Assembly (NCBI GenBank): GCA_019638935.1
Contig: JAHBSW010000019.1
Location: forward strand, 1-43,520
Direction: 5' to 3'
Length of the DNA stretch: 43,520 nt
Source: Cryobacterium sp.
GTDB taxonomy: Bacteria; Actinomycetota; Actinomycetes; Actinomycetales; Microbacteriaceae
Of the stretch, positions 32,909-40,817 are shown in pieces (position 1 is the stretch's first letter; every line of letters starts with the position of its first letter). The position numbers were made by a program, and so were the translations under genes. The notes under the pieces were generated by a model. It saw only the letters and a list, made by a program, of their open reading frames with translations, was not told the DNA's origin and ran no database searches.

Positions 32909-35052
32909 GGGGCGATCCCGGCTGACCCCGCGGCATCCTGTGCCCGCGCACTCTGTGCCCCGGCATCCTGTGCCCCCTGCGCCTGGATGGCGGTGATGGC
33001 GATGGTGTTGACGATGTCCTGCACGGTGGCGCCGCGGGAAAGGTCGTTCACGGGCAGCCGCAGGCCCTGCATGATGGGGCCGATGGCGACGGCTCCGGCG
33101 CTGCGCTGCACGGCCTTGTAGGTGTTGTTGCCGGTGTTGAGGTCGGGGAAGATGAACACGGTGGCGCGGCCGGCGACCTCCGAGTCGGGGAGCTTGGTGC
33201 GGGCGACGGCGGCATCCGCTGCGGCGTCGTACTGGATGGGCCCGTCGACGGGGATGCTCGGGATGCGCTCGCGCACGAGCGCGGTCGCGGCCCGCACCTT
33301 GTCGACCTCGGCGCCGGTGCCGGACTCCCCCGTCGAGTAGCTCAGCATCGCGACGCGCGGCTCGATGCCGAACTGCGCCGAGGTGTCGACCGCGCTGACG
33401 GCGATGTCGGCGAGCTCGGCGACGGTGGGGTCGGGGATGACGGCGCAGTCGCCGTAGACGAGCACGCGGTCGGCGAGGGCCATGAGGAACACGCTGGAGA
33501 CGACGTCGATGCCGGGGGCGGTCTTGATGATCTCGAAGGCGGGGCGCACGGTCTGGGCGGTGGTGTGGGCGGCGCCGGAGACCATGCCGTGGGCGTGGCC
33601 GAGGTGCACCATGAGGGTTCCGAAGTAGTTGGGGTCGGTGACGGTGTCGAGGGCGCGCTCGTAGGTGACGCCCTTGTGGGAGCGCAGGCGGGCGTACTCC
33701 TCCGCGAATTTGACGCGCAGCACGTCGTCGAAGGAGCTGACGACGTGGGCGGCCTGGATGTCGAGACCGAGCCCGATGGCGCGGGACCGCACCTCTATTT
33801 CTTCGCCCAGGATCGTGAGATCGGCGATGCCGCGGCTGAGCACGGTGGCGGCGGCGCGCAGGATGCGGTCGTCGTCCCCCTCGGGCAGCACGATGTGGCG
33901 GCGCTCGGCGCGCGCCCGCTCGATGAGGGAGTACTCGAACATGAGGGGGGTGACGACGTCGCTGCGTCCGAGCTGCAGCAGGCTGAGCAACTCGTCGTGG
34001 TCGATGGCGGTGTCGAAGAGGGCGCGGGCGGTGTCGAGCTTGCGCTGGGAGTCGGCGGCGAGGCGGGGCCGGATGTCGTTGATGCGCACGGCGGTGTCGA
34101 AGCTTCCGAGCGGACTCTCGATGATGGGGATCGAGGGACGGATGCCGTCGATGAGGCTGCCGACGTGCTCGGGCAGTTCGAAGCCCCCGTTGAGCACGAC
34201 GCCGGAGAGGGAGGGGAAGGTGGCGGACTCGTGGGCGAGCAGCACGGCGAGCAGCACCTCGGTGCGGTCGCCCGGAACGACGACGACGGATCCCTCGATG
34301 AGCCGCTTGAGCACGTTGTCGACGCCCATGGCGGCGATGACGACGCCGAGGGCCTCACGGTCGAGCAGCTCGGGGTCGCCCTTGATGAGGGTGCCGTGGG
34401 TGGCATCCATGATGGCGCGCATGGTGGGGGCGACGAGCACGGGGTCTTCGGGGATGACCCATACGGGTGCGCCGGGCTCGGCATCCTGAATCGCCGAGTG
34501 GATGTCGGTGAGCCGGTCGGGGTCGGCCCGGTTGGCGATGATGGCGAGCAGGTGCGCGTGCTCGTGGGCGAGCTCGGCGACGGCGACCTCGGTGGCGAGG
34601 CGCATGGCGTCGGGGGTGCGGTACTCGCTCTGCGAGCGCGGGTGTCCGCCGAGCACGAGGAGCACGGGGGCGCCGAGGTTGGCGGCGATGCGGGCGTTGT
34701 ATCCGAGCTCGGTGGGGGTGCCGACATCCGTGTAGTCGGACCCGAGGATGACGACGACGTCGCACTGCGCCTCGACAGCCTTGTAGCGCTCGACGATGCG
34801 GGCGAGGGCGCGGTCGGGATCCTCATGCACCTCGTCATAGCTGACGCCGACGCTCTCGTCGTAGCCGATCTCGACGCCGTCGTGCTGCAGCAGCAGGTCG
34901 AGCACGTAGTCGTTCTCGGTGGTGGACCTCGCTATGGGTCGGAAGACGCCGACTTTTTCGACACTGCGCCGGAGGGTAGCGAGGACGCCCAGCGCGATGG
35001 TCGACTTGCCGGTATTGCCTTCGGCGGAGGTGATGTAGATGCCGCGGGCCAC
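32905..35052 (-). CDS. pta: Phosphate acetyltransferase
   Basis: A 715-residue enzyme converting acetyl-CoA and phosphate to acetyl phosphate. It has the long three-part form: an N-terminal BioD-like P-loop domain (IYITSAEGNTGKSTIALG, residues 5-22), a central DRTGG-type domain, and the C-terminal catalytic PTA domain beginning near ERRHIVLPEGDDDRILRAA, with MVHLGHAHGMVSGAAHTTA and FPDLNTGNNTYKAVQR. It is complete. The final 20 residues are an Ala/Gln-rich tail with a degenerate repeat (AQGAQDAGAQSARAQDA). It is the first gene of the pta-ackA operon. The sequence upstream drops sharply in GC. Confidence 0.97.
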   Translation of the reverse strand: MARGIYITSAEGNTGKSTIALGVLATLRRSVEKVGVFRPIARSTTENDYVLDLLLQHDGVEIGYDESVGVSYDEVHEDPDRALARIVERYKAVEAQCDVVVILGSDYTDVGTPTELGYNARIAANLGAPVLLVLGGHPRSQSEYRTPDAMRLATEVAVAELAHEHAHLLAIIANRADPDRLTDIHSAIQDAEPGAPVWVIPEDPVLVAPTMRAIMDATHGTLIKGDPELLDREALGVVIAAMGVDNVLKRLIEGSVVVVPGDRTEVLLAVLLAHESATFPSLSGVVLNGGFELPEHVGSLIDGIRPSIPIIESPLGSFDTAVRINDIRPRLAADSQRKLDTARALFDTAIDHDELLSLLQLGRSDVVTPLMFEYSLIERARAERRHIVLPEGDDDRILRAAATVLSRGIADLTILGEEIEVRSRAIGLGLDIQAAHVVSSFDDVLRVKFAEEYARLRSHKGVTYERALDTVTDPNYFGTLMVHLGHAHGMVSGAAHTTAQTVRPAFEIIKTAPGIDVVSSVFLMALADRVLVYGDCAVIPDPTVAELADIAVSAVDTSAQFGIEPRVAMLSYSTGESGTGAEVDKVRAATALVRERIPSIPVDGPIQYDAAADAAVARTKLPDSEVAGRATVFIFPDLNTGNNTYKAVQRSAGAVAIGPIMQGLRLPVNDLSRGATVQDIVNTIAITAIQAQGAQDAGAQSARAQDAAGSAGIAP

Positions 35053-35152
35053 GGTGTTGAGTCTAACTGGCGGAGGTTGACGGGAAAGCGACGGCTAGCA
35101 GTAGAGATATTGAGGACGGCACAGTGGTCTGGGCATCAACTCGAGATCATGC

Positions 35153-36958
35153 TCAAGAGGACGACGCGTCAGGAGTTCTCCATGCCCCGCGGTCCTCGAC
35201 TAGATGGAACATGTCTCGCAAGACGTCCTGGGAGAACCGGTTGTACTGACTGGATGCATAAGGGAACTTCTCCTTAGAGAAGTTGATGTTCCAACTCTTT
35301 ACCAGCGATTCGTACTGCCGAAACTCTTTCGTTCCGATCGCAGGAAGAGAGCGACGCAGCGCGATAAGCATGCCGTTGATCACGGTGGTCGAAGTGATCT
35401 TTGAATCCACATTGCGCCACTGATCCGTATGACAGCTCTTGAGCGCTCCGAAGTACTGGTCCAGGAAGGCCGCCGCATACTCGACGTACTCCTCCAGCAA
35501 TTTCGAGTCAGACTTGTTTCGAAGACCAGCGCGAGCCTTATCGCCACTCACCCACTCGGAAAAAAGGCCGTGGTTGCCTTCCGCGCGCTCATCAATGTCA
35601 ACCAAGTATCGAAGCGCGAATTTAATGATCGATGCCACCTTGATCGGCGCGTCCTCGACTTGGGACAACTGGAACATGCCCTTGAATGTCGATCGTTTGT
35701 TCAGTGCCTCGACAACCTGACGAGCAACTGCGATGTCCGCGTAGGGATCTCGCAGCGTTTCGATAGCTAGCAGCACATCCGGCGGGACCGGCTTGGCATT
35801 GGAATTGATATCCAGGAAGATCGTGCTCTCGATCTTCCGCCGTTCCAGACTGCTCATCGCCTTCGGAAATACGAGGCCCGTCGCCAGGAGGTGCATCTTC
35901 CCCCGGAGAGCGGCAATTTTGCCCTCCAGCGCATCTGTTCCTTCGTAGTGTGCGTAGACCCGATGTTGCCCGTCAATGAGGCAGATCGAATTGAACTCAT
36001 CCGGAATCGTCATCCGATAACCGGCATAGTCCTGGATGGCGTCCAACTCAATCGCGTCGCCACCAGCGGTCTGAAACCCAACCTCTGCCGGAAGGCTAAC
36101 GATGATGTTGTTCAGGAACGCCGCACCTTCGCTCGCCACAAACTTCCGTATCTTGTTGATCCGTGTAGCCTCGATTAGTCGCTGATACAACTCAATAGAG
36201 AGATCCCAGTTATCTTTACGCAAAACGAAAGCGTTTCTTAGAAGCGTCTCTGCTGAGATCATGAATGACACGATCCGAATACCGTTCCCGAATCCGGTGC
36301 TATCAATTGGAGCGATGATCGTCGTCTCGATTGTGCTCTTCTGGTTCGAAGACCTTACTTGACCAATATCGGTCGAGCTTAGATCGAGATAACGGAATAG
36401 ATCAGTTCTAGCCGAACGGCGGATGTTCGCAGAGAGCTTGTAGAAGTAGTTCAGCGCCTTCCCCGTTACTACCTTCATTGGCTGAAGCAACCGCTCTTGG
36501 TCCTCGTCGAGATCCATGTCATGGAGCGATGCGTACAGGAAGAAAACACGGAACCGCTGCGTGCTGTAGGTGTTGAGAGCGTTGCTGTGCTCTGGGAAGG
36601 TCTCTCTTAGCCACGCGAGGAAGCTGGCCTTGTTGTCCAGGATCTGATCGGCAAGTATCTTCTTGTTCTTCGCATGGTCGAACACTCTGGTCGTTGCCGT
36701 CGTGTCTTCCACAATCAGAATCAGGTTCTGAAAAAGGTAGACCGCATCAAGCTCTCCGGTCTTGCTCCCGAACTTCGCCTCCTTGCCGGCGGTCCGAAGA
36801 TGCGCGAAGCCCATGTTCGTGAAAATGGTACGGATTCGCCGGAAGAAGCGTCGTTGCTCGAGCACGGCTGGATCAAGCGGCTTCCGCTTACTCCTAGGCT
36901 TGCCTCTCGGTGAAGGTCTCGCCATCGTCTGCATCCCCTCAATGTGCTCATGGCCCAT
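35153..36958 (-). CDS. DGQHR-domain protein with N-terminal nuclease-like region
   Basis: A 601-residue protein of the DGQHR class, related to DndB and, more distantly, to ParB/DUF262-type domains. The defining motif SICLIDGQHRVYAHYEG is at residues 325-341. The N-terminal region has FTNMGFAHLRTAGKEAKFG, then GELDAV (68-73) and LILIVEDTTATT (79-90). These suggest a PD-(D/E)XK-like fold with the Asp and Glu positions, but Thr stands where the usual Lys would be, so activity is uncertain. No signal or membrane segment is seen. GC and codon use are far from the neighbours (23/60 G+C in 36181-36240), indicating transfer. The ATG at 36925 (residue 12) with GAGGGG upstream is an alternative start. 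It is divergent from the DNA methyltransferase gene. Confidence 0.82.
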   Translation of the reverse strand: MGHEHIEGMQTMARPSPRGKPRSKRKPLDPAVLEQRRFFRRIRTIFTNMGFAHLRTAGKEAKFGSKTGELDAVYLFQNLILIVEDTTATTRVFDHAKNKKILADQILDNKASFLAWLRETFPEHSNALNTYSTQRFRVFFLYASLHDMDLDEDQERLLQPMKVVTGKALNYFYKLSANIRRSARTDLFRYLDLSSTDIGQVRSSNQKSTIETTIIAPIDSTGFGNGIRIVSFMISAETLLRNAFVLRKDNWDLSIELYQRLIEATRINKIRKFVASEGAAFLNNIIVSLPAEVGFQTAGGDAIELDAIQDYAGYRMTIPDEFNSICLIDGQHRVYAHYEGTDALEGKIAALRGKMHLLATGLVFPKAMSSLERRKIESTIFLDINSNAKPVPPDVLLAIETLRDPYADIAVARQVVEALNKRSTFKGMFQLSQVEDAPIKVASIIKFALRYLVDIDERAEGNHGLFSEWVSGDKARAGLRNKSDSKLLEEYVEYAAAFLDQYFGALKSCHTDQWRNVDSKITSTTVINGMLIALRRSLPAIGTKEFRQYESLVKSWNINFSKEKFPYASSQYNRFSQDVLRDMFHLVEDRGAWRTPDASSS

Positions 36959-37062
36959 CGGTCTACCTTGGCGTAACCGTACCGTGATGCCCAGTCGGAT
37001 CTCATCCTGGCGCGCGGCCGTCTCTGATTGTCGACGGCTGGGTTACTGTTGATCTTGTTGCG

Positions 37063-37095
37063 GGAGGAACGTCGATGGAAGAGGCAGCATGGTGA
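37063..37095 (+). promoter_or_regulatory. Ribosome-binding site and 6-codon leader frame overlapping the methyltransferase start
   Basis: GGGAGGAA (from 37062) is well spaced for the ATG at 37075, which opens a tiny frame (MEEAAW) ending in TGA at 37093-37095, across the methyltransferase ATG at 37089. The methyltransferase has its own weaker GAAGAGG 4 bases before its ATG. This arrangement would couple methyltransferase translation to the leader. Confidence 0.45.
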
Positions 37096-38489
37096 GTGAA
37101 GCGGTCACCGGAGTCGATGGAGAGACCGCCTCCGACCCGCTCGGTCGCGGATTTTGGACAGTGCATCAGGGCGATGCGCGGCAACTCGCCGACTTTCTCC
37201 CGCGTGGCGCGCAGCAGCACGGTTCCGAAGGTGCGCCTTTCATCCAGACCACGATCACATCCCCGCCGTATGCCAATCTCGTCGACTATGGCGCGGCGAA
37301 TCAGATCGGATTTGGCCAGTCTTACCAGGACTACCTAGCCGCCTGTCGCACTGTGTTCGAAGACGTCTATCGATGGACACTTGACGGTGGATCCCTGTGG
37401 CTTGTCGCAGACAGTTTGATGACGCCGAATGGTCGGGGGACTCCGTCCCGACTAGTTCCTCTACCCTTTGACCTGGCCGCCGAGGCTGCCAAAGTCGGCT
37501 GGACCCTGCGCGAGGTCATCGTGTGGCGCAAGGATCGAACCAGGCCATGGTCTCATCCGGGAAAGTTGCGGAACGGTTTCGAGTACGTACTGTTTTTCGT
37601 CAAGTCGAAATCTTTCAAGTTCAATGTGGATCGACTCCGAGAAACCAGCAGCTTGAAGTCCTGGTGGGTGAAGTATCCGGAGCGCCACAACCCATGGGGG
37701 ATGACACCGGACAACGTGTGGGATATCCCGATCCCGGTTCAGGGCAGTTGGGCCGACTCCTCCCTTCGGCATGCATGCCCATTCCCACCCGAGCTCGTAC
37801 GGCGAATGGTGGCGCTGTCCTCAGAGGAAGGGGACGTGGTCTTTGACCCGTTCGCCGGTAGCGGGATGGTCGTCGCTACCGCAGAAAGCGAAGGCAGACG
37901 GGCGCTGGGTGTGGAACTAAATCCAGAGTACGTTGAAGCATTTCATCAGCGGGTGCGGCCGGTCTTGACACGCCGCAGCACGGCTGGTTCCGTAAAACCG
38001 GTCGGGCTGATGACCCAACGGCTGCTCGAACTTCGAGTGCTGAAGTATCCCAAGGAATTGGCCAAACAGCTGCTGCGAGAAGGCTTCACCGCGGCGCAAC
38101 TCATAGGCATGATCGTTGATGTTGAGTCGATCAACTGGACGCCTGCGCAAACCGGCTACGCGTCGATCATCTGCACCGTCGTTGTCAGCGAACAACTCTC
38201 CGAGATCGAGCGCGCCCGGTTGTCAAAGGCGGTTGAAGACGCAACTAGCCGAGCTCCACTGTCTCGGTATGGACTGCGTGTGAGCTGTTCGATACTACCC
38301 CTCACCGACATACTTGAGGATCGCGACGAAACATCGCTGGCGGTATACACCAAGGGGCGAACTTGGAACGCGTCGCATGTCATACCCGCGTCAGCTTTAG
38401 CTGGTTGGCTGCGCGAACAAGGTAGCCAATCTGTTGTGCCGATCGTCTCGGAACTTCAGGTGAACCAGTCTCTCGAAGAATATCTGTGA
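37089..38489 (+). CDS. Site-specific DNA methyltransferase (beta class, SPPY-type)
   Basis: A 466-residue amino-methyltransferase acting on DNA. The catalytic motif IV is TTITSPPYANLVDYG (Ser-Pro-Pro-Tyr at 58-61), the form most often seen in N4-cytosine enzymes, though N6-adenine cannot be excluded. The AdoMet motif I, VFDPFAGSGMVVATA (251-265), follows later with LGVELNPEY (273-281); the order IV before I is the beta class. Between them, residues 150-240 (HPGKLRNGFEYVLFFVKS and a Trp-rich stretch) probably hold target recognition. Residues 295-466 form an extra domain I cannot assign. It is divergent from the DGQHR-nuclease-like gene, with about 130 bases between. Composition is intermediate between island and host. 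Confidence 0.88.
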   Translation: MVSEAVTGVDGETASDPLGRGFWTVHQGDARQLADFLPRGAQQHGSEGAPFIQTTITSPPYANLVDYGAANQIGFGQSYQDYLAACRTVFEDVYRWTLDGGSLWLVADSLMTPNGRGTPSRLVPLPFDLAAEAAKVGWTLREVIVWRKDRTRPWSHPGKLRNGFEYVLFFVKSKSFKFNVDRLRETSSLKSWWVKYPERHNPWGMTPDNVWDIPIPVQGSWADSSLRHACPFPPELVRRMVALSSEEGDVVFDPFAGSGMVVATAESEGRRALGVELNPEYVEAFHQRVRPVLTRRSTAGSVKPVGLMTQRLLELRVLKYPKELAKQLLREGFTAAQLIGMIVDVESINWTPAQTGYASIICTVVVSEQLSEIERARLSKAVEDATSRAPLSRYGLRVSCSILPLTDILEDRDETSLAVYTKGRTWNASHVIPASALAGWLREQGSQSVVPIVSELQVNQSLEEYL

Positions 38490-38740
38490 GTGGCACCCAT
38501 GATCGTTAGGTCAGTCACGAATCAGTGATCTGCGGTAAGACGCCCGCCACGAACTCGCTACTTACGAGTAGAGAAATCGCCTCACGAATCGAGATAGGCC
38601 AATAGAGTCACTATGAGGTCGCGGCCTCGGTTCCCCCTGATCAGCCCAGGAAATCAGCCAGATTTCGAGCCGACAGTTGTCGTTCCTGAGTGGGAACATC
38701 CAAACGGTCGCAAACTCAAATCCACCTCTAGCGCAACACC

Positions 38741-40510
38741 TCACTCAGGCGACATCGCCCGTTCCAGCTGCACCCTCAGCGCTTCATCGCACACATACAC
38801 ATACGTGCCCCGTATCCCGCGCGTGAGCAGTACCGCGTAGATGTTGGTGATGTAGCGGAGCAGGTCCTCATCGCTGTAGGTCTTGCCGAGAACGGGGTTG
38901 TTCTCCTTGCCCTTCTTGTCGAAGTAGAGAGAGCGATCGACCGCCAGTCGTCGCTTCTTCTGATCCCAGAAGAGATCCGGGCCGATGATGACCCCTGCGT
39001 AGTTCAGGTCATAGCCCTGCACCGTGTGAATGGAGCCGACCTCCTCCAGGGCATTCGGGGAGTTGATCCAGTCTTTGTCGGTTCGGTTCCAGCGCAGCTC
39101 GCTCCCATCCAATGAGATGTCGACTGCCGAGGGGTCCTTGCGACTGCGCCACTCCCAGGCGTAGCCCGCTACGAGCCGGGCCAGCCCGTGCTCGTGATCC
39201 CGCGCGCGGATCGCGTCGTGCATCTGCCCGACGTCGTCGAAGAAGCGCAGGTCGTAGTCGCCGAGATCCTCCGGTCGGCGGGGCAGAACGTCAGAGGGGT
39301 CCGCCCCGGCGCGGAACACGTCGCGCACCCACGAGATGTAGCCATCTCCCGCCCGCACACGAAGCTGTGACGTCAGAGGGAAGAAGCGATGACGCTCCTT
39401 CGCATCCGTCACCACCGCCCGCACCCGCTCGGCTGCCAGATCGGCCGGCCGCACGCTCTGCTCGGGATCCACGAGAAGCAGTTGGTGGCGGCTCTGGGCA
39501 GTCACCCAGTCCAACTGGGTCTTCTGGATGTCGTCCGCGCCGAACAACTTGGTGTTGATGTCGATGAACTTCTTGTTGAGCACCCCCGACGACTGGTTCG
39601 CACGTTGCGTGAGTCGGTGCGCCTCGTCGACGATGAGCAGATCCCAGGGTTGTTCGCTGGCACCGACCTCGAACGGTGTCAGCACCTGCGCGGCGCTGAG
39701 GCCAGGGGTGCGTCGAAAGACCCTCTGGATGCTGGCACGCAGCGACTGCTGCGGCACGACCAGCCCGACCCGAAAACCGCGAAGGAGCTCCCGATAGCCC
39801 GCCGTGAAGAACTCCGCGAAGATGGAGTCCGAGTCCTGCTCGTCGTCGGGCCTGGACACGGCGACATCGGCAAGCAGTTTCATCAGGTAGATCGCGATGA
39901 TCGTCTTGCCCGTGCCGGGCTCGCCCTGCACGACCACGAGCTCGCCCACGTCGTTCTCGAGATCGTCGAACAGGCCCTCCAGAATGTCGACCGCCGCTGC
40001 GGCTTGGTCACGTTTCAAGACCTTGTACGGTGACAGCTTGAAGAGGTCGTCGTTCTCGATGTCCGCGACGCTTCGGGTCAAGACGCCCTCATCCAGCAAC
40101 CGCTCGAAGACCGCCCCGAAAGAACGCCGGTAGCGCTCACGGTCGAAGTACGCCCGATCCGTGATGCTGACATTGCGGTTCAGAATCCGGTACGCCCCGT
40201 CGCCGGCGAGCAGCCGGATGAGATGAGACTCGAGATCCAGGCACGCCGACTTGTTGAAGGTGTCGTCGAGCACCACCCTCACCGAGCGGAGGTGCTTCTT
40301 GTCGGGAGAGCCGAGGTGCTGCAGCAATCGTTTTCTCGCGTTCAGTGTCTCCCCCACGTAGACGTCGCTCAGAGCCGCCTTCGAGCCGCCGCGCCTTGCC
40401 TCGTCCAGGACATAGACGACCGGCCAGTCCAGATGCCGACTGTCATCGAGCGCCCACTTTCGAACGGCATCCTTCTCGAAGGGCACCTGCCGAATCTCAA
40501 AGCCGGTCAT
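38741..40510 (-). CDS. GIY-YIG nuclease-like / DUF2075 helicase fusion
   Basis: A 589-residue two-part protein. The N-terminal GIY-YIG-like domain has VVYVLDE (31-37) and DVYVGETLNARKRLLQHL (49-66), with Glu94 as the likely metal ligand. From about 165 onward is a superfamily 1-type DUF2075 ATPase: Walker A GEPGTGKT (196-203), Walker B LLIVDEAHRL (291-300), LLLVDPEQSVRP, and the late motif SIHTVQGYDLNYAGVIIGPD (493-512). Its partner in DNA or RNA processing is unknown; such fusions are frequent in phage-defence neighbourhoods. Its start overlaps the end of the pyrophosphohydrolase gene by 14 bases, so the two are co-translated. Confidence 0.9.
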   Translation of the reverse strand: MTGFEIRQVPFEKDAVRKWALDDSRHLDWPVVYVLDEARRGGSKAALSDVYVGETLNARKRLLQHLGSPDKKHLRSVRVVLDDTFNKSACLDLESHLIRLLAGDGAYRILNRNVSITDRAYFDRERYRRSFGAVFERLLDEGVLTRSVADIENDDLFKLSPYKVLKRDQAAAAVDILEGLFDDLENDVGELVVVQGEPGTGKTIIAIYLMKLLADVAVSRPDDEQDSDSIFAEFFTAGYRELLRGFRVGLVVPQQSLRASIQRVFRRTPGLSAAQVLTPFEVGASEQPWDLLIVDEAHRLTQRANQSSGVLNKKFIDINTKLFGADDIQKTQLDWVTAQSRHQLLLVDPEQSVRPADLAAERVRAVVTDAKERHRFFPLTSQLRVRAGDGYISWVRDVFRAGADPSDVLPRRPEDLGDYDLRFFDDVGQMHDAIRARDHEHGLARLVAGYAWEWRSRKDPSAVDISLDGSELRWNRTDKDWINSPNALEEVGSIHTVQGYDLNYAGVIIGPDLFWDQKKRRLAVDRSLYFDKKGKENNPVLGKTYSDEDLLRYITNIYAVLLTRGIRGTYVYVCDEALRVQLERAMSPE

Positions 40511-40817
40511 ACTTCTCGCTGCGGCCGCGGGCCTTCTCCACCGGGTACTTGCGGCGGGTCTGCTCCAGCTTCTCCAGCACCAGTTCCGAGGGATCGACGC
40601 CGATGCGATCCGCGAGCAGCAGGGCGTAGGTCAGCACATCGGCCAACTCGTCTCGGAGGCGCTCGTGATCGGCATCCGACCCCCACTGGAAGCACTCGAG
40701 CAGTTCCGCAGCCTCGATCGAGATGCTCTTCGCCAGATTCTCCGGCGAATGGAACTGCGCCCAGTCCCGCTCGGCGACGAAGGCGCGAAGTGCGGAGAGC
40801 GCAGCATCCTCGGACAT
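40497..40817 (-). CDS. MazG-like nucleotide pyrophosphohydrolase
   Basis: A 106-residue all-alpha NTP pyrophosphatase of the MazG/RS21-C6 (dCTPase-like) group, expected to split non-canonical or excess NTP/dNTP to NMP plus pyrophosphate. The metal-binding EXXE-EXXD pattern is present: Glu35-Ala-Ala-Glu38 in ISIEAAELLECFQW, then Glu57-Leu-Ala-Asp60 in RDELADVLTYALL. The C-terminal RRKYPVEKARGR is typical. It is the first gene of a two-gene operon with the GIY-YIG/DUF2075 fusion, overlapping it by 14 bases. The pairing suggests that nucleotide control and the helicase work together, perhaps in defence; that is inference. Confidence 0.92.
   Translation of the reverse strand: MSEDAALSALRAFVAERDWAQFHSPENLAKSISIEAAELLECFQWGSDADHERLRDELADVLTYALLLADRIGVDPSELVLEKLEQTRRKYPVEKARGRSEKYDRL

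What the first reader, a model, noticed from the sequence alone, without database searches (positions are those of the whole stretch)
35153..38489. Divergent pair: DGQHR protein with nuclease-like N-terminus, and a beta-class DNA methyltransferase
The sequence shows a foreign-looking segment (GC drops abruptly after pta) holding two divergent genes. One is a 601-residue protein with the DGQHR motif of DndB-like proteins plus a GELD/LIVED motif like PD-(D/E)XK nucleases. The other is an SPPY-type methyltransferase with an unassigned 170-residue C-terminal domain. No restriction endonuclease, dndACDE, BREX or DISARM genes are beside them. DGQHR/ParB-like proteins and methyltransferases are both established parts of DNA-modification and defence loci. 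The inference is a compact two-gene modification-restriction or modification-regulation system in which the DGQHR protein senses or cuts DNA lacking (or carrying) the methyl mark.
Basis: partly seen in the sequence, partly recalled or inferred. Interest (0 to 1): 0.78.

Follow-up and report, generated by a model that had tools for sequence, protein, structure and literature searches.

The report
Two-gene methylation-and-nuclease defence module
A bacterial DNA-marking enzyme and a nuclease-like protein that carries an ATP-binding-type domain travel together as neighbours across many distantly related microbes, which points to a compact, apparently undescribed kind of restriction-modification defence.

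Summary
The 601-aa protein (35153-36958, minus) has an N-terminal domain that models as a PD-(D/E)XK nuclease fold, a ParB/sulfiredoxin-like DGQHR domain and a helical tail. Its neighbour (37089-38489, plus) is a beta-class SPPY DNA methyltransferase whose C-terminal domain is shared by 34 partners aligned here. Of 88 distinct loci with the long DGQHR protein (ten named phyla, two archaeal records), 84 can be judged: a beta-class methyltransferase is the direct neighbour in 80 and within 5 kb in the other four. The usual order is methyltransferase then nuclease on one strand; the window alone is divergent. No third gene recurs in more than 5 loci. Seventeen other DGQHR places from the window's phylum show neither the N-terminal domain nor a methyltransferase close by. 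Nuclease-site residues and DGQHR motifs are near-invariant. Best reading: a two-gene restriction-modification system whose nuclease cuts DNA lacking the partner's mark, probably gated by nucleotide. Cleavage, target and NTP use are untested. Two loci also carry a BglII- or BamHI-family enzyme, so an accessory role is not excluded.

The parts
35153..36958 (-). Putative restriction component: 601-aa PD-(D/E)XK + DGQHR (ParB/Srx-like) protein; possible start at 36925 (Met12)
   Evidence: ORF; TIGR03187 above cut-off; 76-row alignment A3; AlphaFold2 mean pLDDT 91.4, pTM 0.89; Met12 aligned with Met in 72 of 81 rows
36374..36871 (-). N-terminal nuclease-fold domain (residues 30-195)
   Evidence: Model elements helix 30-48, strands 60-63, 66-69, 72-76, 79-86, helix 92-108, strand 137-144; Foldseek matches to PD-(D/E)XK proteins, placed here by inference; no match in this part in Pfam, PADLOC, NCBIfam or PHROGs at E up to 1
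36662..36748 (-). Putative nuclease active-site stretch, residues 71-99: D71, E84, T86, H95, K99
   Evidence: Conserved in 80, 81, 81, 81 and 80 of 81 full-length rows
35789..36334 (-). DGQHR / ParB-Srx-like domain (about residues 209-390) with Q259-R260, D329-R333 and F381xxxN385
   Evidence: Q259, R260, D329-R333, F381 and N385 in 81 of 81; Foldseek to pNOB8-like ParB-N and GmrSD N-terminal domains
35189..35788 (-). Helical C-terminal region (about residues 391-590), role unknown
   Evidence: Secondary structure of the model; W514 in 81 of 81
37089..38489 (+). Beta-class SPPY DNA methyltransferase, 466 aa
   Evidence: PF01555 E 2.8e-42; Foldseek to TTHA0409, CcrM, M.RsrI, M.PvuII; 33% identity over a 448-column BLASTP match to the Akkermansia phage partner
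38001..38486 (+). C-terminal domain of the methyltransferase (residues 305-466)
   Evidence: Aligned in 35 methyltransferases, window included; modelled as an alpha/beta domain; the 50 PDB matches listed all describe methyltransferases and none singles out this domain
36959..37088 (.). Intergenic region between the divergent genes
   Evidence: Sequence read; no sigma-70-type consensus promoter found in 35000-38800

Best explanation
The two genes form a self-sufficient restriction-modification system. The beta-class methyltransferase (SPPY motif, so probably N4-cytosine) marks the host's copies of its target. The 601-aa protein is the restriction subunit: its N-terminal PD-(D/E)XK domain cuts DNA in which that target is unmarked, and its DGQHR domain, related in sequence or fold to the ParB/Srx-type domains of DndB, DpdB and GmrS, binds or hydrolyses a nucleotide and gates the nuclease or the DNA search. 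Shown here by computation: near-obligate linkage, conserved active-site residues, the fold model, no recurrent third gene found. Inferred: N4C chemistry, cleavage, preference for unmarked DNA (a nuclease that cut its own partner's mark would be suicidal), NTP gating, phage defence.
For: Linkage: classes 89 rows (88 distinct; L005 and L093 are the same phage): 74 methyltransferase upstream on the same strand, 4 convergent (two of these the same phage), 1 same strand downstream, 1 divergent (the window), 4 cut at a contig edge, 5 further apart. Of the 5, L079 has the methyltransferase 9 bases from the N-terminal half of a split gene; the other four have one within 5 kb. In 35 of 75 same-strand neighbours the frames overlap, taking the first start codon of each frame. 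Third genes: the commonest neighbour families occur in 5 of 88 loci. Control: of 17 other DGQHR places from the window's phylum, 0 hit the N-terminal-domain profile and 0 show a beta-class methyltransferase within 1.5 kb of the matched domain. Conservation. Fold; Foldseek to PD-(D/E)XK proteins with probabilities 0.87-1.00 (Cdn1, XisH, VC1899, AF1548, R.BspD6I small subunit). Partner classes follow the DGQHR tree: 12 changes against a shuffled mean of 40.2; distances correlate (r 0.35, highest of 1000 permutations 0.12). SPPY in 69 of 74 methyltransferases. Three loci (L016, L065, L079) have the nuclease gene in two pieces beside an uninterrupted methyltransferase, the expected direction of decay. 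The pair is in an Akkermansia phage near its integrase.
Against: Two loci carry a recognised type II enzyme between the methyltransferase and the long DGQHR gene: BglII family in L006, BamHI family in L082; there the long protein cannot be the only nuclease. L035 has its nearest methyltransferase 4.5 kb away. In L059 the methyltransferase is in two overlapping frames while the nuclease gene is whole, which would be lethal if real and not a sequencing error. Methyltransferase classes are exchanged beside the protein, hard to reconcile with strict sequence-specific recognition unless the classes share a target. The same-genus genome G005 keeps the methyltransferase with other partners and no long DGQHR gene. 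The third catalytic position is Thr86 instead of Lys; K99 on the next helix is only a proposed substitute. Foldseek gave no PDB match at E 0.001 or better and printed no query ranges, so assignment of the nuclease matches to the N-terminus is my inference. No enzymatic evidence.
Confidence: 0.62

Rival explanations
1. Accessory or backup effector. The long protein is not the sequence-specific restriction enzyme but a second nuclease that works with the modification system, for example degrading DNA already recognised as unmarked or responding to phage nucleotides or loss of methylation (abortive type).
For: Coexistence with BglII- or BamHI-family enzymes in L006 and L082 and with a GHKL-ATPase plus ~300-aa protein module in L071, L074 and L085; exchange of methyltransferase class within that four-gene set; viral-library structure match to an AIPR protein (E 1.2e-3, probability 0.99).
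Against: In 80 of 84 assessable loci the methyltransferase is the direct neighbour, and one search found no third gene family in more than 5 of 88 loci, so in most loci no other candidate restriction enzyme recurs beside it (unique or very diverged ones would be missed).
Confidence: 0.2
2. Regulator. Like DndB as described in Salmonella, the DGQHR protein represses or tunes the methyltransferase operon and the nuclease fold serves DNA binding.
For: DndB is reported as a regulator (title and start of abstract of PMC4507180 in the listing; passages of PMC10853773). The window's pair is divergent around a 130-base intergenic region.
Against: The five proposed nuclease-site residues are near-invariant across ten named phyla. 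Operon order is M then R in 74 of 89 rows, where repression from a divergent promoter does not apply.
Confidence: 0.1
3. The pair is an accident of a defence island in this one genome and the genes are unrelated in function.
For: The window pair alone is divergent, and the next genes (SLFN-g3 helicase and MazG-like) form another pair. The same-genus genome G005 keeps a 51% identical methyltransferase without the DGQHR gene, and none of the 7 same-genus genomes has the DGQHR gene.
Against: 80 of 84 assessable loci have the two side by side, from ten named phyla.
Confidence: 0.03

Closest known systems
Type II restriction-modification systems (beta-class N4-cytosine methyltransferase plus PD-(D/E)XK enzyme)
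   Same: Two adjacent genes, one methyltransferase and one nuclease-fold protein; no helicase or specificity subunit recurring beside them; uninterrupted M beside split R in three loci
   Different: The nuclease carries a ParB/Srx-like DGQHR domain and a helical tail; no known type II enzyme family matched it; target and cofactors unknown
GmrSD-type enzymes (ParB-Srx DUF262 domain plus HNH nuclease); SspE by recall
   Same: A DGQxR ParB/Srx-like domain coupled to a nuclease domain; QR, DGQ[HQ]R and FxxxN motifs described in PMC4619093 (passages); viral-library model matches to GmrSD N-terminal domains
   Different: PD-(D/E)XK at the N-terminus instead of HNH at the C-terminus; partnered with a methyltransferase; GmrSD is described there as modification-dependent
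DndB and DpdB (DGQHR proteins of phosphorothioate and deazaguanine systems)
   Same: DGQHR domain (TIGR03187 above cut-off)
   Different: TIGR04172 47.1 against 450 bits and DpdB NF041060 37.5 against 300 bits, both far below cut-off; extra N-terminal nuclease-fold domain; no third gene in more than 5 of 88 loci
GHKL-ATPase (MORC/paraMORC-like) restriction-modification operons
   Same: The related methyltransferase in G005 sits with a HATPase_c_3 protein 37% identical over 406 residues to the one in L071, where the long DGQHR gene is in the same gene row; such operons are described in PMC2292703 (passages)
   Different: The window has no GHKL gene in the pair; the words ParB and DndB do not occur in that paper

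Membership tests
Restriction-modification system (type II-like) | Adjacent DNA methyltransferase gene | tested here: met
   PF01555 E 2.8e-42; adjacent in 80 of 84 assessable distinct loci
Restriction-modification system (type II-like) | Nuclease fold with conserved active site in the partner | tested here: met
   Model pLDDT 91.4; Foldseek probabilities 0.87-1.00 but no E-value at 0.001 or better; D71/E84/K99 in 80, 81 and 80 of 81; canonical third Lys replaced by Thr86
Restriction-modification system (type II-like) | Cleavage of unmethylated DNA, protection by methylation | not testable with these tools
Restriction-modification system (type II-like) | No further recurrent subunit | tested here: met
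   Commonest other neighbour families in 5 of 88 loci; only ORFs of 90 aa or more within 6 kb, clustered by BLASTP over 55 bits
DGQHR domain family (TIGR03187) | Score over the curated cut-off and QR, DGQHR, FxxxN motifs | tested here: met
   87.7 against 58.85 bits; motifs in 81 of 81
DndB / DpdB | Equivalog cut-off | tested here: not met
   47.1 of 450 and 37.5 of 300 bits
GmrSD type IV enzymes | DUF262 plus DUF1524/HNH domains | tested here: not met
   Neither domain matched in Pfam at E up to 1
N4-cytosine methyltransferase | SPPY catalytic motif (recalled rule) | tested here: met
   TSPPY in the window; SPPY in 69 of 74 partners, DPPY in 4, one without a regex match
N4-cytosine methyltransferase | m4C found in host DNA | not testable with these tools
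   Needs long-read kinetics
BREX, DISARM | Core genes beside the pair | tested here: inconclusive
   Only the pair and its two next genes were scanned in PADLOC. The rows shown name no BREX part and one DISARM part, a weak DrmD match (E 0.0017) of the neighbouring helicase; for the methyltransferase 25 of 73 families were shown

The most novel reading that the evidence does not exclude
A widespread, unnamed class of nucleotide-gated restriction-modification in which one polypeptide joins a PD-(D/E)XK nuclease to a ParB/Srx-like DGQHR switch, with no helicase or translocase, and whose methyltransferase partner is a replaceable cartridge: the same nuclease lineage has been re-paired several times with methyltransferases of different classes, so self/non-self discrimination may be passed from methyltransferase to nuclease instead of being read independently by each.
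Probability: 0.35. Interest if true: 0.78.

Novelty: new variant of a known kind. Interest (0 to 1): 0.62.

Why it matters
If true, it assigns a restriction role to a protein family now annotated, in the plasmid records seen, only as 'DGQHR domain-containing protein', and supplies the missing partner for methyltransferases that would otherwise be called orphans. It would also put a ParB/Srx-type nucleotide switch on a PD-(D/E)XK nuclease, giving a directly testable case of how such DGQHR domains control DNA cleavage, a question I take to be still open for DndB, DpdB and GmrSD.

Tried and rejected
Single-sequence scan of genome contigs for the DGQHR protein found nothing; the profile of four relatives then gave 84 relatives, of which 80 loci were kept, and the viral scan 4. 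Searching 60 relatives and 396 genomes of the phylum with the protein gave only the window itself and one partial match.

DndB-type regulator, GmrSD membership and chance neighbourhood were considered and lowered for the reasons given. The idea that the divergent arrangement is the hallmark was dropped. The idea that the SLFN-g3 helicase and MazG-like gene belong to the system was dropped: the two are neighbours in all 7 relatives' loci fetched for the helicase (18 of 60 genomes, own included, had a match, many partial), and those 7 loci show no methyltransferase hit.

Target site: class-6 methyltransferases of L090, L017 and L024 are 70-73% identical to the one beside the BglII-family enzyme in L006, which hints at a GATC-centred site for that class (BglII site by recall), but the window's class 3 has no such neighbour, so no site is proposed for it. 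A uracil-glycosylase guess for a ~250-aa neighbour in five loci was not supported by Pfam in the two members scanned. Repeat and promoter scans around the pair gave nothing useful. Literature: searches showed no paper describing this pair in the listings or passages seen; most subscription papers are missing from the library and REBASE is not held. PMC5608340 looked promising but reports only the absence of DndB homologues. A search for the phage's name found no paper.
Full report
Observation. The minus-strand protein matches the DGQHR domain model above its cut-off over residues 231-535 and nothing named over its first 220 residues at E up to 1. The plus-strand protein is a beta-class DNA methyltransferase by PF01555 and by fold.

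Relatives. tblastn found seven plasmid records and one phage record. The three with most of the protein sit beside a methyltransferase: Phyllobacterium and Rhizobium plasmids with the methyltransferase directly upstream, and Akkermansia phage Chantilly, convergent, with a methyltransferase that matches the window's over its whole length including the C-terminal domain. A Spirosoma plasmid match runs off the end of the record; there a BglII-family enzyme lies between methyltransferase and DGQHR frame. The other matches (Leptospira, Acinetobacter, two Novosphingobium records of which one was opened) are partial and mark other DGQHR genes. A profile of the window, Phyllobacterium, Rhizobium and phage proteins gave 84 relatives in species genomes, 80 kept, and 4 viral contigs. 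The seeds were chosen by similarity of the DGQHR protein alone, not by their neighbours. The two peptide patterns used make this a lower bound.

Linkage. In a mechanical census of 89 rows (88 distinct loci, since L005 and L093 are the same phage), a methyltransferase profile hit lies within 300 bases in 80 rows: 74 upstream on the same strand, 4 convergent, 1 downstream same strand, 1 divergent, the window. Four rows begin at a contig edge and cannot be judged (L015, L030, L047, L092). Five rows are further apart: L079, where the nuclease gene is in two frames and the methyltransferase is 9 bases from the first; L006 and L082, with a BglII- or BamHI-family enzyme between; L071, with a GHKL ATPase and a 300-aa protein between; and L035, 4.5 kb away. 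So, counting distinct loci, 80 of 84 assessable are direct neighbours (79 plus L079) and 84 of 84 have a beta-class methyltransferase within 5 kb. One of the adjacent ones (L068) is a fragment cut by the contig edge, and L059 is in two overlapping frames. The 80 species loci span Bacteroidota (28), Pseudomonadota (28), Bacillota (9), Planctomycetota (4), Mycoplasmatota (2), Thermodesulfobacteriota (2), four further phyla with one each, and 3 without a phylum in the tool's table; two are archaeal by that table. None is from a record it calls actinobacterial. The window's own phylum is not named by the tools; that it is actinobacterial is my recall of its gene style.

Control. The DGQHR model found 18 places in 396 genomes of the window's phylum, one of them the window. 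The other 17 are 16 genes in 14 genomes, 4 of them below the cut-off. None hits a profile of the N-terminal domain (E up to 1) and none of these loci holds a methyltransferase hit (E up to 1e-3) within 1.5 kb of the matched domain, less where a contig ends. The linkage therefore belongs to the long architecture, not to DGQHR genes at large, with the limit that flanks were short.

Is it self-contained? Clustering all other ORFs of 90 aa or more within 6 kb of the gene over 88 loci, the commonest families occur in 5 loci each (a ~250-aa protein, two members of which had no Pfam match over cut-off, and a 404-452-aa family that by recall looks like a tyrosine recombinase), and the GHKL ATPase with its 300-aa partner in 3. 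No third gene recurs more often. Some loci are cut by contig ends, and single or very diverged neighbours would be missed.

Anatomy of the nuclease candidate. The AlphaFold2 model from 76 window-and-locus sequences has mean pLDDT 91.4. The N-terminus reads helix, short strand, four strands, helices and strand. Among Foldseek's first PDB matches are Cdn1, XisH proteins, VC1899, AF1548, the R.BspD6I small subunit and Can2-type nucleases, all with the PD-(D/E)XK fold by recall, plus pNOB8-like ParB-N domains. E-values are weak (none at 0.001 or better) and query ranges are not printed, so the split of matches between domains is inferred from target lengths and element order. In the viral library GmrSD N-terminal domains and an AIPR protein match. 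D71, E84, T86, H95 and K99 are kept in 80, 81, 81, 81 and 80 of 81 full-length rows, and Q259-R260, DGQHR and F381xxxN385 in 81 of 81. Those three motif groups are the ones listed for this superfamily in PMC4619093 (passages). The usual ExK lysine is Thr86; K99 on the following helix may replace it, as I recall for some viral endonucleases of this fold.

Anatomy of the methyltransferase. Motif IV is TSPPY and precedes the FAGSG motif, the beta-class order by recall. SPPY occurs in 69 of 74 partners, DPPY in 4, and one had no regex match; by recall SPPY favours N4-cytosine. The C-terminal domain aligns across 35 methyltransferases and is modelled with fair confidence (mean pLDDT 80.7 for the protein), but the 50 listed PDB matches describe methyltransferases, none singling out the domain.

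Evolution. With the partners cut into six classes (an arbitrary number), the classes fall on the DGQHR tree of 74 rows with 12 changes, against a shuffled mean of 40.2 and as low in 0 of 200 shuffles; the least possible is 5 (a quick tree, on which the window and seven other rows have unusual composition). Partners are thus inherited together but exchanged several times. The window is one exchange: its nuclease groups with nine proteins whose partners are class 5, while its methyltransferase is class 3. A second is L071: its nuclease is 62-63% identical to those of L074 and L085, which have class-2 methyltransferases and the same GHKL module, but its own methyltransferase is nearest to class 6. 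In the same genus as the window, G005 has a methyltransferase 51% identical over 446 residues; it sits behind a GHKL ATPase and a 326-aa protein (21% identical to the 300-aa one of L071, E 5e-5) and the genome has no long DGQHR gene. None of the 7 same-genus genomes has it. The methyltransferase family therefore plugs into at least two effector modules.

Mechanism. The simplest account is restriction-modification: methylate self, cut unmarked DNA, with the DGQHR domain as a nucleotide-dependent gate. That the nuclease must spare methylated DNA follows from its being encoded with the methyltransferase; the rest is inference. Against a strict type II enzyme stand the two loci with an additional classical enzyme, the partner swaps, and L059. 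A backup or helper nuclease is the main rival. The pair in a phage near its integrase and on plasmids fits a mobile defence module.

Known or new. PADLOC, NCBIfam and Pfam give the long protein no system name: its matches are the general DGQHR domain model over cut-off, and DndB- or DpdB-type models that carry no cut-off or that it misses; PHROGs gives none. Papers holding 'DGQHR' number six in the library (listing). Passages were seen of PMC4619093, PMC10853773, PMC12839542, PMC2292703, PMC8011034, PMC5608340, PMC8649781, PMC12707154 and PMC13343189, and none of those passages describes this pair. No paper was read whole. REBASE could not be checked, so 'apparently undescribed' is limited to these searches.

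Noticed in passing
window 38741-40817 (minus): SLFN-g3 (DUF2075-type by recall) helicase with a weak GIY-YIG match at its N-terminus, overlapping a MazG-like pyrophosphohydrolase gene. A MazG-like relative (69-76% identity) lies beside the helicase in 7 of 7 loci fetched, so this is a second conserved pair beside the finding.
   Followed up: partly
L128:4508-8578 (G005, same genus): Three-gene cluster: GHKL ATPase (562 aa), 326-aa protein without Pfam match, and a methyltransferase 51% identical to the window's. SAD/SRA-HNH and NERD-UvrD helicase genes lie nearby.
   Followed up: partly
L071:2393-7698: One row of genes on the same strand: a class-6-like methyltransferase, GHKL ATPase, 300-aa protein and the long DGQHR nuclease. 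L074 and L085 have the same set with a class-2 methyltransferase.
   Followed up: partly
L006:15173-17271 and L082:3649-7605: Methyltransferase, BglII- or BamHI-family restriction enzyme and long DGQHR nuclease in one cluster. In L082 the BamHI-family gene is on the opposite strand.
   Followed up: partly
L007:427-4303 (Acinetobacter plasmid): A short DGQHR protein (324 aa) follows a methyltransferase and a NotI-family enzyme, with a 325-aa protein without a PADLOC match behind it; a possible separate DGQHR-associated type II set.
   Followed up: no
L094 and L095 (haloarchaeal plasmids): Matches to 93-95% of the window's methyltransferase, C-terminal domain included. In Halococcus it is a 514-aa protein next to a 965-aa DNA methyltransferase, with a PD-(D/E)XK nuclease-family gene; in Halobaculum it is the C-terminal half of a 975-aa DNA methyltransferase next to a 509-aa one. 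Both clusters hold an AAA-family ATPase.
   Followed up: no
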